Shown here piece by piece: positions 8,258 through 12,911 of a stretch of DNA of 64,000 bases. Location: NCBI RefSeq assembly GCF_025766255.1, contig NW_026516710.1:248001-312000 (forward strand), read 5' to 3'. Position numbers and translations under genes: made by a program. How positions within the stretch are numbered: the first letter of the stretch is position 1; every line of letters starts with the position of its first letter. The notes under the pieces are model-generated. The model ran no database searches and was not told where the DNA came from. It saw only the letters and a program-made list of their open reading frames with translations. This DNA comes from Zychaea mexicana (taxonomy: Eukaryota > Mucoromycota > Mucoromycetes > Mucorales > Lichtheimiaceae).

Positions 8258-10629
8258 AAAACAAAATGGAATGACCATATATAAATTGATACCCTCAACA
8301 TCCTCTTTTGATTCTTTCTTTCAGTCACTCTCTCTGTCTCTTTTAAACCAATATACATATATGTAAGGTGTAAAATAAACTTGTGGGAATCATTTTATTA
8401 AAAAAGTAGAGTAAAAGCAAAGTTAAAAAGTACAAACGCAAAAATATTGAGCACGTTATTGGCATGCTGCGCTAAGCTGCCACACGTACACACAAGGACA
8501 ATACTGAGTTATCAGAGCAGATAGAAATAACAACTGCTGCCTGAATGAAAAGACAATATGTGCATACTAGCTCAATAGTCTTGCACGAGCAAATTTCCTC
8601 ACCGCCAATATCACAAGAACATATACAAGGCGAAATAATTTAGAAGGCAGAAGTAGTTCTTTATCATGGAATGCATAATCTTATGCAGTATCACTTCTTA
8701 CCATATGAATCATATTAGATAGGTTGATTCAATGATACTTCTTGTAGTATTTATTAATACAAATATAACAGGACCATCATGGATGTATACAGTACTTTAA
8801 TACACAGTGTGGACGCCAGAATGTGATTGCAATATAGGCATAAATAATATCAACGAAATGTCTAGCTATTTAGTAAGAAGAATTATATATAACTTGAAGT
8901 CAGGCAGGTTATTGAATTCTTAAAATGATAAAATATGTATTGCATCACCCCGTCGTGGGCACGTTATGAATCATCTATGCACGAATGAATGCTTGCACTG
9001 TGGTCCATCAAAGATACATTCTGACCAGAAACACCATATTGCAAACTAGTTTGCAATCTGTTTTTAAGCGCATAACCTTTCGCTCTGCTCTAGTATATTT
9101 GGCACTGCGTGATTAATAACTGGAGAATGATGACAAATGCGATATGACAATGGATAAATGCTCAATCATACAAGAAATATTGTTCTGCTGAGCTGGTGCA
9201 CTTGGTGCAGTGGTTTCCCGTTTAGATCAACCCCAAAGGGGGTCTTGAAGGGTTGAAGCGAATGAGGTTGAAAAAAAGTGAGGGTGAGTTTCATATAGAA
9301 TCTGTATGCTTTCTTATTTTTGAATGTCCCATCATAAAAGTTGCCACAATTGAAGGTGGAATGTATCCAAGGGAGATTTTAACTGGGAATCACTATATGT
9401 GGAGTCAAGTGCTTTTTTGTCTTATGCTTGTTGACGTCGGTGATGAGGATGTTGCTGATGCTGAAGAAGATAGGGCTGGCAATTATGCTGATAGTGTAAA
9501 CGATGCATACGACAATGAGCCAACGAGAAACATAGTGGGAGGGATGGATAGGTAATGTTGTCAGTTGTAGCTCACAACTACTGTAGACTTTGTAGGTTTC
9601 CTCAGCTATTTCCTTTTCATTAGCTGCGAGTTCGAGGAGAGAGCACAACCGGACGATGCAATAATTCTTTCTCGGATATGCTGCAGGCTTTGAGCAGCGA
9701 ATTCTTGTGATATTCCCTTGCGGGATAAATATCCTTATCATGAAGAATAACATCGCTAGAATTGTGCGACACATAGTAAGTATCCTTGCCAACATCAAGT
9801 TACTTTTTCAACACATTATACGTACCCTTGATATTGTATCCTAGAATGTGCAGCTAGTAAATTAAATTTGATGATCGGTTGACAACTTCGGAAGCACGTC
9901 GTACATCACAACTGGTGTTTGATCATACTGTCAGCTCACTTTTTTGATTGTTCGCTTTTCCGATTTCCAAGCACCCTATTCCTACATCTCCGCTTCCAAC
10001 GTACACAGTGTCAGTTCGTCGACCATCCTTCAAACTATACACCGGACGATCAACAGTTGAGTCTTTCTTCCTTATTGGTTGCTTCGGCATTTACTACACT
10101 TGACTTTTCTTTGCTTTAAGATAGTATTTTCCAAACATTAGCCTGCAATCAAAACATGGATATCCTCGCAATAGACTTACCCAAGTGAACAATACGGTAT
10201 AAATATATTTTTTATCTCAAATCATATGATACCAACCATTTGGACTTTTCTTGGCAACAGAAGGGACTTTATTTGTGTCCCTCCACAGCGGAAAATATTA
10301 GCCTAAGATTACAGGATACTGCAAAAAAGCAGTTTCACTATACTTAATAAAGCATCAATATAAAAATTACACAGGTATTCAAGGGGAAAAGTTGGATAGA
10401 AGCTTTAATTTAAGATTAAGAATTTATTGTCTGAAACATTGAATAATTCAAGTATCCTTCTTTAATGAATTCCAGAGTTTATAATGGAATTCTACTTTTG
10501 CATATAAACATGGAAAATCAGAAGAATCCTAGTGTTGTTCCTTGTTTGCTCATAGTATCAACAAGTATTAAAAGAAGAATCTTTCATATCGAATTATGTT
10601 TATTCAGGGGGGTAAAAATTACTTTGTAA
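8258..10629. other. AT-rich gene-poor stretch with weak coding relics
   Basis: The Ist1 3' UTR is followed by AT-rich DNA without a convincing gene. Two weak signals stand out: an open + frame of 100 codons at 9253-9555, and a - strand reading of about 9620-9790 that stays open with a plausible composition but no start and no splice context. Both could be remnants of decayed genes. A short stretch at about 9190-9260 resembles a tRNA A box. I see no tRNA or rRNA. Confidence 0.5.
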
Positions 10630-10899
10630 TTAAAGATGGTTTCTGTCTCCTAAAATCTCCTGTTGGTGCTTTCCATTTACCATGCCAGGCCAGATAATGT
10701 GCTGCCTGACCTGGTTTCTCGCTCTAGTTTCTGACAAAAGTCCAACAAAATCAGTGATGGATTCTGCTTCAACGACATATAGTTTCTCAGTACTCGATCC
10801 CGTCAAATACAGAGAGCATGTCGTTTTCTCGAGGTTGGGCTGATAAATTCCGATTAACGCCAGCTTTTTCGTATTGCCAGCGCTTATTATGGTACCAGA

Positions 10900-11073
10900 T
10901 ACACTTTTTTCAGATATTACTGGCGCATGCGTGGGATGGCAAGTGGCTTTATGCAATTGGAGTGAGTGGCACAGAGTAAAAAATGATACTGGCGCAACTA
11001 TCTTAAATAAGGCACATATTATGTTGTCGTTCAGATCTATGACAAAATAGGTTATTCACGAAGAACGGTTTAT
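10900..11073 (+). repeat. Left terminal inverted repeat
   Basis: This arm pairs with 12619-12790 in inverted orientation. By eye the two differ by about four or five substitutions in the central part and a few one-base indels near the inner edge, over roughly 172 bp. Similarity stops at about 11073. Confidence 0.9.
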
Positions 11074-11088
11074 CCAGCTCATTGCTAA

Positions 11089-11258
11089 GTTGACAAATGG
11101 GTTGACAAATGGGCTGCTGAGTTGACAAATGGGTTGACAAATGGGCTGCTGAGTTGACAAATGGGTTGACAAATGGGCTGCTGAGTTGACAAATGGGTTG
11201 ACAAAACTTTCAGTTGTCAACCGAATTGTCAACCGAATTGTCTACTTAATTGTCAACC
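11089..11258 (+). repeat. Tandem TTGACAA array with inverted TTGTCAA copies
   Basis: Three full 32-bp units (11089-11120, 11121-11152, 11153-11184) and a partial fourth (from 11185) each hold two TTGACAA cores. They are followed by several inverted cores (TTGTCAA, one degenerate) up to the nuclease start codon. The array sits between the left arm and the gene, where a promoter or a site for the element's own protein would be expected. No matching array is seen at the right end. Confidence 0.9.
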
Positions 11259-12376
11259 ATGGCTGGCCTTCCTGGCGTCTTCTCTTTACGACCAGGGTCG
11301 GATCTAATGGCGAAATCCATAACACGCAATTCATCGGTTATCAAGATCATAACAACAGCTCTAGTCAAAACGGCAGATGACTACTTTGTTGCGGAAAGCG
11401 AGTGGGGCAATGGAAGTCGGTCTGATCTTGTTTTGTCACCTCGTTCGTCATCTTTTCAGCTCGCGCCTATCATCATAGAGTTTCAATGTCGGGTGGACAA
11501 GAAATTCATGAAAAGATTGATCATGTACTCTTTACAAGCGTATCGACGTTACGAAAAGGATCCAATCATGCTCATTATTTGTAGCGGTACTTTGTACGAT
11601 GATGTAGCGAATCTTCTTAAATCGAGTGATGTTCTTGGTTGTAGGCGCTATCCATGTGAAGGCTGGGGTGCAAGTGCCTTATCATGGCTAAGGAAAGTCT
11701 CTCGTCACTCACAGCTTCGGAGAAACGTGAGCCATTTGCCAGCTTTGGACTTTTTCTCACACAGTCAATGCCGTTCAGTGAGCTTTCCAGCGACGATGAG
11801 ACAACAAAAATGCTGCAGTCACTAGCCGTTGACCACTACATGTCTTTAATTGGAAATGAAGCCCACCTCATCGACTTTATAAAAGGAGTACTCGACAAGC
11901 AAGAGATATTCTACAATAAGATACTCGCTCTCGCTGATGATGATGATAAACCAAGGTTACGTGAAGCTATCCAAGATGCTCAAGTCGAACAACGAGCTCT
12001 AAAGCGGAAGCTGGACGAATTGGAGGATGATGACAATGATGTTAACAATGACAACGCGGTGAATGATGACAATGACAACGCGGTGAATGATAACAATGAC
12101 AACGCTGTGAATGATAACAACGACAACAATGACGATGGTGTACACGTTGCTACCCCCTCTTCCTCAACTACTTTGGAGGATAGAAAAGCACTGTACAAGA
12201 AAGGGATGGAGTTTGTCGCGAAGTATAAGAAGGCACGAATGGCTAAAGGCAAGAAGCGCATGGACTGGCAAGAATGCATGGCTGCAGGACGGAAGGAAGG
12301 TCTGCTGTTGAACTATAAAAATGCCAATACATTGAAAAATCAGTTTGCAAAGTTTGAAGGAAATAATGATGATTAA
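11259..12376 (+). pseudogene. PD-(D/E)XK nuclease-like gene of the element, frameshifted
   Basis: The start at 11259 lies in CCATGG context. The first frame carries the fold's signature: SRSDLVLSP (candidate catalytic Asp), then PIIIEFQCRVDKKFMKR (Glu-X-Gln in place of E-X-K), then a helix LIMYSLQAYRRYEKD with Gln/Tyr as often seen in motif IV, then a hydrophobic strand PIMLIIC. At about 11664-11670 (TGGGGTG) the reading must slip by -1 to continue as CKCLIMAKESLSS and on through the rest of the gene. The second part has a helical region, an Asp/Asn-rich low-complexity stretch (about 12020-12140) and a basic C-terminal block with WQECMAAGRKEGLLLNY that could bind DNA. The break is in a run of four G, so an assembly error is possible. 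Family placement is inferred from motifs. Confidence 0.7.
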
Positions 12377-12618
12377 TAAACATACCCACTGTCATGCTGA
12401 TGAGATCAATGGAAAGAGGATATGAACATCTAGTGTGATAGCGAAGAAGATGCCCCACCATATTTTGTATAATCAAGCTGGAAGCGTGGAAATGGATGAT
12501 GGGATCGCTATTGTTAAGATTTTGTAGTTATTCTACATCCACGCTTGATGACTGTTTACAACGTAAGCCTTTGTAACGTTACAGCATGAGCGGACACGTT
12601 TATATATCCATTCATCGT

Positions 12619-12790
12619 ATAAACATTCTTCGCGAATAAACCTATTTGTCATAGATCTGAAGACAAGATAATATGTGACTTATTTAAGATAGTTGCGCCA
12701 GTATCATTTTTTACTCTGTGCCACTCACTCCAATTGCATAACGCCACTTGCCATCCCACGCATGCGCCAGTAATATCTGAAAAAAGTGTA
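12619..12790 (-). repeat. Right terminal inverted repeat
   Basis: Inverted partner of 10900-11073. Its outer end (AAAAAAGTGTA) is the exact complement of the left outer end. Just inside, at about 12485-12555, a short imperfect hairpin (AAGCGTGGA ... TCCACGCTT) may be a transcript end for the element's gene. Confidence 0.9.
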
Positions 12791-12911
12791 GTAGTGAGGA
12801 CATGTGTAACGGATGTTTAAACTCGCATATGTAAAAATTTGGGAAAATTTGGTCGCTCGAGCAGCTTTGAAAAAAACAGATTGTCTTAAATCTCCCAATA
12901 TCAGTATACAC

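What the first reader, a model, noticed from the sequence alone, without database searches (positions are those of the whole stretch)
10900..12790. Inverted-repeat mobile element whose only gene is a PD-(D/E)XK nuclease
Two ~172-bp arms, nearly identical and inverted, bracket a single gene with the motif series Asp ... Glu-X-Gln ... Gln/Tyr of the PD-(D/E)XK fold instead of a DDE/D transposase. Bacterial Rpn-type PD-(D/E)XK proteins are linked to recombination, but TIR elements in fungi normally carry DDE enzymes. This may be an undescribed eukaryotic element family, or a passenger gene in a non-autonomous element.
Basis: partly seen in the sequence, partly recalled or inferred. Interest (0 to 1): 0.82.

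Follow-up and report, generated by a model that had tools for sequence, protein, structure and literature searches.

The report
Transposon carrying an Rpn-like nuclease gene
A small cut-and-paste jumping gene in a mould has the ends of the common Tc1/mariner type, but its only gene codes for a bacterial-style DNA-cutting enzyme, so it probably borrows its mover from a sister element in the same genome.

Summary
Window 10900-12790 is a 1,891-bp element with 172-174-bp inverted arms (95% alike) around one gene; the genome is very probably Zychaea mexicana (Mucorales). The product is an Rpn-type PD-(D/E)XK nuclease: a profile comparison with E. coli RpnA relatives scores 39.5 against at most 23.4 in 200 shuffled decoys, and RpnA's essential D63, E82, Q84 and R94 have counterparts. 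The genome holds three copies: this one, one split by a nested element, one half. Empty sites of the two other copies show a TA target duplication. Each arm carries two TACTGGCGCA repeats. The terminal 14-mer occurs 15 times in 50.3 Mb: 5 at ends of this element, 8 at ends of four copies of a DD34E (DDE_3) element, 1 at a remnant, 1 stray. So this is most likely a non-autonomous Tc1/mariner-type element with a nuclease passenger, moved in trans by that DD34E transposase. The window copy is frame-broken after the nuclease core. Seventeen loci hold diverged relatives of the gene; one lies inside a TA-bounded 10.5-kb element with two DDE genes. Fanzor1-only Mariner elements are the closest precedent. 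What the nuclease does for the element is not shown.

The parts
10900..12790 (.). whole element including the terminal TA on each side
   Evidence: arms, ends, junctions against other repeats, copies
10900..11073 (+). left terminal inverted arm
   Evidence: 95% to right arm; related to the arms of the C67 DDE_3 element
12619..12790 (-). right terminal inverted arm
10918..10927 (+). outer TACTGGCGCA repeat, left arm (putative transposase site, inferred)
10987..10996 (+). inner TACTGGCGCA repeat, left arm
12694..12703 (-). inner TACTGGCGCA repeat, right arm
12763..12772 (-). outer TACTGGCGCA repeat, right arm
11083..11258 (+). subterminal repeats: 32-bp unit with TTGACAA (11083-11205), then 12-bp unit with the inverse TTGTCAA (11214-11258), just before the ATG
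11259..11681 (+). N-terminal part of the gene: PD-(D/E)XK nuclease core with D15, K19, D56 (11424-11426), E74 (11478-11480), Q76 (11484-11486), R86 (11514-11516), Y90
   Evidence: translation, conservation, profile comparison
11666..12376 (+). rest of the gene in another frame: helical region, acidic 24-bp minisatellite (12039-12127), C-terminal region
   Evidence: full-length model of a relative

Best explanation
A non-autonomous Tc1/mariner-type (IS630-Tc1-mariner) DNA transposon whose only gene codes for an Rpn-type PD-(D/E)XK nuclease. Shown from sequence: ends and arms related to those of a DD34E element in the same genome, TA target duplication at the two other copies, three copies, a conserved nuclease signature. 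Inferred: the DD34E transposase of C67/C121-type elements acts in trans, binding the TACTGGCGCA repeats, cutting at the CACTTTTTTCAG ends and inserting at TA. Inferred with less certainty: the nuclease is (or was until recently) an active enzyme that benefits the element, for instance through breaks whose repair copies it. The window copy cannot make the full protein, because its frame is broken after the nuclease core.
For: Three copies, 98-99.4% alike. C183 flanks joined by one TA equal the uninterrupted sequence at 3 of 3 fetched places (8 other places listed), and the C149 site reads TATAAGG-TA-TCC uninterrupted in the 1 fetched copy. Genome-wide the 14-mer TACACTTTTTTCAG has 15 hits: 5 at this element, 8 at four DDE_3 copies, 1 at the C189 remnant, 1 at C284; control 0. 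Left arm against C67 left arm: 110 of 138 aligned columns identical; without the first 14 bp score 37 against at most 22 in 500 shuffles. DDE_3 E=1.7e-27; 34 residues between second D and E (residue roles recalled); 2 of 4 copies have an open frame. Nuclease: hhalign against Rpn E=2.7e-5; domain alone score 39.5, 200 decoys at most 23.4, reversed 11; DDE profile control probability 0.4; E and Q kept in 13 of 13 rows with a residue.
Against: Trans-mobilisation is inferred; no assay. The two elements' arms are related, not identical (about 80% over 71 bp), and of four arm comparisons one (window left against C67 right) does not beat its shuffles (score 11, shuffle maximum 19). The window copy has no simple empty site: its flanks come from two different repeats, and the left one reads TT, not TA, there. 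No curated family cut-off is reached for the nuclease, and unrelated families appear at similar E-values; Foldseek has no match at E<=0.001. Codon differences between copies give no sign of selection (window-C183: 9 nonsynonymous, 3 synonymous; C149-C183: 3 and 3).
Confidence: 0.8

Rival explanations
1. Two-component transposon: the nuclease is a working accessory of DD34E transposition (in the manner of Tn7 TnsA or the YqaJ-domain protein of ISL2EU), and the window element is a derivative that kept this gene and lost the transposase.
For: A relative of the gene lies inside a TA-bounded 10.5-kb element with a DDE_3 gene in each inverted arm (C68:299587-310130). Six loci have a relative within about 1.2 kb of a DDE_3 gene or fragment, in five of them downstream on the same strand. 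Active-site residues are kept in most diverged relatives.
Against: The C68 relative is a partial gene (143-codon frame). Transposons cluster, so nearness may be accidental; by hand, 0.3 of 17 loci would be expected within 5 kb (1.6 if all 466 first-look candidates were real) against 4 on the list. C285, C237 (156 kb), C70, C262 and C24 show none of the transposase probes nearby. The C67/C121 composites gave no match to the nuclease.
Confidence: 0.25
2. Hitch-hiker: a host or other transposon's gene was captured between two ends and has no role; it is decaying.
For: Of three copies, one is frame-broken, one truncated with stops, one open; no selection signal between copies; relatives at C70, C124, C24 and C44 have lost or stopped active-site positions.
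Against: The full protein is conserved in other Mucorales (Lichtheimia corymbifera 78% over 76% of the query, Circinella minor 47% over 98%).
Confidence: 0.4
3. Retention device: the nuclease is toxic and its C-terminal domain or a second product restrains it, as reported for bacterial Rpn proteins, so that loss of the element is punished.
For: Bacterial Rpn proteins are reported as toxins blocked by their own separately made C-terminal domain, a three-helix bundle (PMC10327210, abstract and passages). The fungal family also has three helices at its C-terminus (model of P0004, residues 316-376, pLDDT blocks 67-91).
Against: The likeness of the two C-terminal domains was not tested, nor was any internal start; broken copies are tolerated.
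Confidence: 0.1
4. The PD-(D/E)XK protein is itself the transposase of a new kind of element.
For: It is the only gene between the arms.
Against: TA target, and arms shared with a DD34E element that has open copies in the genome.
Confidence: 0.05

Closest known systems
Fanzor1-only Mariner elements and Mariner elements with an endonuclease as second gene (Bao and Jurka 2013, PMC3627910; abstract and passages seen)
   Same: Mariner-type ends, TA duplication, a nuclease-type protein in place of or beside the transposase; non-autonomous forms that share ends with a true Mariner; one listed second protein resembles the EcoRII catalytic domain.
   Different: Fanzor1, GIY-YIG or EcoRII-like protein instead of an Rpn-type one; hosts other than Zychaea (their Fanzor list includes Mucorales, where the examples given are MuDr-type).
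Rpn / YhgA-like recombination-promoting nucleases (PF04754, TIGR01784; PMC5350276, passages)
   Same: D, E-X-Q, R signature in register with RpnA D63, E82, Q84, R94; RpnA is reported as a Mg-dependent non-specific endonuclease.
   Different: Fungal, with its own C-terminal region; below curated cut-offs; carried inside inverted arms.
DD34E / DDE_3 Tc1/mariner-type elements of this genome (C67:61527-63220, C121:6812-8505)
   Same: Terminal 14-mer, related arms, TACT[A/G]GCG[C/T]A repeats.
   Different: Carries the transposase, lacks the nuclease.
ISL2EU (PMC4482050, passages)
   Same: DDE transposon group with a second gene for an exonuclease-domain (YqaJ) protein.
   Different: AT target, THAP-containing transposase, reported there from animals only; both genes in one element.

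Membership tests
IS630-Tc1-mariner superfamily (non-autonomous member) | TA target-site duplication | tested here: met
   C183: joined flanks with one TA match 3 of 3 fetched uninterrupted places; C149: 1 of 1. For the window copy itself: TA on both sides, but no simple empty site.
IS630-Tc1-mariner superfamily (non-autonomous member) | terminal inverted repeats shared with a DDE element of the superfamily | tested here: met
   DDE_3 match, DD34E spacing
IS630-Tc1-mariner superfamily (non-autonomous member) | mobilised by that transposase | not testable with these tools
   needs an excision assay
IS630-Tc1-mariner superfamily (autonomous member) | encodes a DDE/D transposase | tested here: not met
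   no transposase probe matches the window
Rpn family (PF04754 / TIGR01784 / PF12784) | match above the curated cut-off | tested here: not met
   best values 0.0032 (1 of 15 members, PF04754), 0.013 (TIGR01784), 0.07 (PF12784), all under the cut-offs
Rpn family (PF04754 / TIGR01784 / PF12784) | essential residues D63, E82, Q84, R94 of RpnA | tested here: met
   aligned by hhalign; kept in 12/13, 13/13, 13/13, 13/14 rows
Rpn family (PF04754 / TIGR01784 / PF12784) | N-terminal D11 (with K15) | tested here: inconclusive
   D15xxxK19 has the same spacing by eye, but local hhalign does not reach it and the global run does not pair it securely
PD-(D/E)XK fold | alpha-beta core of the fold | tested here: inconclusive
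Rpn family | nuclease activity | not testable with these tools
   bench assay needed
ISL2EU | AT target and DDE + YqaJ genes in one element | tested here: not met
   TA target, no DDE gene in the element

The most novel reading that the evidence does not exclude
In Mucorales an Rpn-type PD-(D/E)XK nuclease has become a working second component of Tc1/mariner-type transposons: it sits downstream of DD34E genes in large composite elements (C68 being the clearest) and alone in small elements such as this one, where it promotes spreading or enforces retention.
Probability: 0.22. Interest if true: 0.75.

Novelty: new variant of a known kind. Interest (0 to 1): 0.46.

Why it matters
It adds a bacterial-type, recombination-promoting nuclease to the nucleases that eukaryotic DNA transposons are known to carry (Fanzor, GIY-YIG, EcoRII-like, YqaJ). 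It also gives a testable pair in one genome: related ends, one element with DD34E and one with the nuclease. If the nuclease helps mobility, it would be a eukaryotic parallel to two-protein systems such as Tn7 TnsA+TnsB.

Tried and rejected
Arms around the 17 loci with diverged relatives: in the fetched stretches, blastn inverted repeats bracketing a relative appeared at C285, C44, C280 and C147, none with this type of TA end. At C68 the ends were found by pattern. C147 has 3.6-kb inverted arms but no clear TA boundary, so I do not count it as bounded.

Empty site of the window copy: none found. Left flank = 617-bp piece of one repeat (5 other places, 3 fetched), right flank = 86-bp piece matching another (39 other places, 1 fetched); plain insertion into either does not explain the site.

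Direct family scans miss their cut-offs. The PDB sequence search gave only helical matches. PF12784 over the genome found nothing, but it rang in no control genome either, so it says nothing. The full-length model's second look was filled largely by long helices. A MULE origin of the arms, suggested by C189, was dropped: C189:15371-15478 is a 108-bp remnant of a C121-type end between C121-like flanks, with a MULE gene about 1.9 kb away.

Literature: the listings showed no title or abstract start about an Rpn or PD-(D/E)XK gene in Tc1/mariner elements of Mucorales; subscription journals are mostly not held. Passages only were seen of PMC3627910, PMC4482050, PMC5350276, PMC10327210, PMC7928374 and PMC12730594.

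Full report
What is there. The window is G000:C248:248001-312000 of a 50.3-Mb, 305-contig genome. The protein database gives the product of the second copy as 'BDB00DRAFT_749371, partial [Zychaea mexicana]' on a contig of 18,751 bases, the length of C183 here, so the host is very probably Zychaea mexicana, Mucorales. The finding's coordinates are exact: 10900-12790, arms 10900-11073 and 12619-12790, 95% alike. Both ends start TACACTTTTTTCAG.

Copies. One search finds three: the window copy; C183, complete but split by a nested 3.8-kb element (C183:5320-9095); and C149, which keeps its right 1,061 bp. Matching long stretches are 98-99.4% identical. The gene is open in C183 (391 codons from stop to stop), frame-broken in the window between about 11666 and 11681, and truncated with two stops in C149.

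Target site. The C183 flanks joined with a single TA reproduce the uninterrupted sequence at C2, C121 and C299 (3 of the 8 other places were fetched; 3 of 3 agree). The C149 copy sits in a tandem repeat whose uninterrupted unit at C109 (1 fetched) reads TATAAGG-TA-TCC. That is clean insertion with TA duplication. The window copy is less tidy: its left flank is a repeat with 5 other places at 97-98%, the 3 fetched break exactly at the element's left end and read ccagaTTTG there, while the right flank 12791-12876 matches part of a different repeat, AGATA-GTAGTG at C113 (1 fetched of 39 other places). The boundaries are thus confirmed from both sides, but the site was a junction of two repeats before, or was rearranged after, insertion.

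Whose ends are these? The outer 71 bp match at 77-80% the ends of elements at C67:61527-63220 and C121:6812-8505. Their ORF is a DDE_3 transposase (PF13358, E=1.7e-27) with 34 residues between the second D and the E (residue roles recalled). Two of four copies have an open frame. Window left arm against C67 left arm: 110 of 138 aligned columns identical; without the first 14 bp, score 37 against a maximum of 22 in 500 shuffles. Window right against C67 left gives the same score; window right against C67 right 20 against 14; window left against C67 right 11 against 19, so that one is not significant. Each window arm has TACTGGCGCA at arm positions 19 and 88 (4 hits in the window, 0.07 expected); the C67 left arm has the outer site at 19 and a variant at 112, the right arm only the inner one at 102. 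Two direct repeats per arm recall the IR/DR layout of Tc1-type elements such as Sleeping Beauty (recalled). The 14-mer TACACTTTTTTCAG occurs 15 times in the genome: 8 at DDE_3 copies, 5 at this element, 1 at the C189 remnant, 1 at C284 (not followed up); control 0. The pattern includes the TA, so this count does not test the TA.

The wider setting. One search lists 27 matches, 4 of them in the three copies above; the other 23 fall in 17 loci (two inverted pairs counted once), 21-42% identical. Six loci have a relative within about 1.2 kb of a DDE_3 gene or fragment (C280 twice, C212, C68, C124, C147), in five of them downstream on the same strand; C44 and C273 (two loci) lie by a DDE_Tnp_4 gene; C285, C237 (156 kb), C70, C262 and C24 show none of the probes. 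By hand listed DDE_3 hits predict 0.3 of 17 loci with a hit within 5 kb, and 4 are on that list; if all 466 first-look candidates were real 1.6 would be expected, and transposons cluster, so this is suggestive only. The clearest case is C68:299587-310130: TACACT[G/C]TTTCCAG at both ends, 1.9-kb inverted arms (99.7%) each with a DDE_3 gene, and a partial nuclease relative at 301898-302326 inside.

How it most likely works. The DD34E protein of C67/C121-type elements acts on these ends in trans, cuts and re-inserts at TA (inferred). The nuclease rides along. Whether it is an active helper, a retention device or a hitch-hiker is open. Its signature persists across diverged relatives and species, but between the copies here there are 9 nonsynonymous and 3 synonymous codon differences (window against C183) and 3 and 3 (C149 against C183), no support for selection.

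Comparison. Bao and Jurka 2013 (PMC3627910, passages) describe Mariner elements that encode Fanzor1 only, with TIRs identical to confirmed Mariners and TA duplications, and Mariners with endonuclease second genes. This is the same kind of thing with a different nuclease. ISL2EU with YqaJ (PMC4482050, passages) is a looser parallel. Tc1/mariner is the largest transposon group in the Mucorales genomes of PMC7928374 (passages). Hence: a new variant of a known kind.

Noticed in passing
L009/L010 (C67:61527-73843) and L011/L012 (C121:6812-19404): The same 12.3-12.6-kb composite (3.6-kb inverted arms, 99% alike, a DDE_3 element at each end) sits at two sites with TA on both sides: a eukaryotic composite transposon that moved as a unit.
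   Followed up: partly
one search list, e.g. C14:62619/66823, C263:86768/91234, C57:487210/501132, C52:80380/86471, C102:33689/37238: Many DDE_3 genes of this genome come in inverted pairs about 3-15 kb apart, so composites with a gene in each arm may be common.
   Followed up: no
L013 (C189:15371-15478): A 108-bp piece of the C121-type end between the same flanks as C121:6812-19404, as expected of an imprecise loss or a deletion derivative.
   Followed up: no
L014 (C183:5320-9095): A nested element with 1.4-kb inverted arms and short tandem repeats is inserted at TA in the second copy; related repeats lie near nuclease relatives at C277, C273 and C262.
   Followed up: no
window 10284-10900 and 12791-12876: The element's flanks are pieces of two different repeats, so the site was a junction before, or was rearranged after, insertion.
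   Followed up: partly
window 11083-11258; C183:9094-9440: Subterminal tandem TTGACAA repeats followed by the inverse TTGTCAA: 8 and 3 in the window, 15 and 3 in C183; promoter or protein-binding role unknown.
   Followed up: no
L036:66-938 (C285:131065-131937): A 291-codon frame with no Pfam match contains PDCLI...GYGEAKR, which by eye looks like another PD-(D/E)XK (ExK) protein, near a pair of nuclease relatives.
   Followed up: no
C284:654775-654788: A lone TACACTTTTTTCAG without a partner in the list; chance or an old remnant.
   Followed up: no
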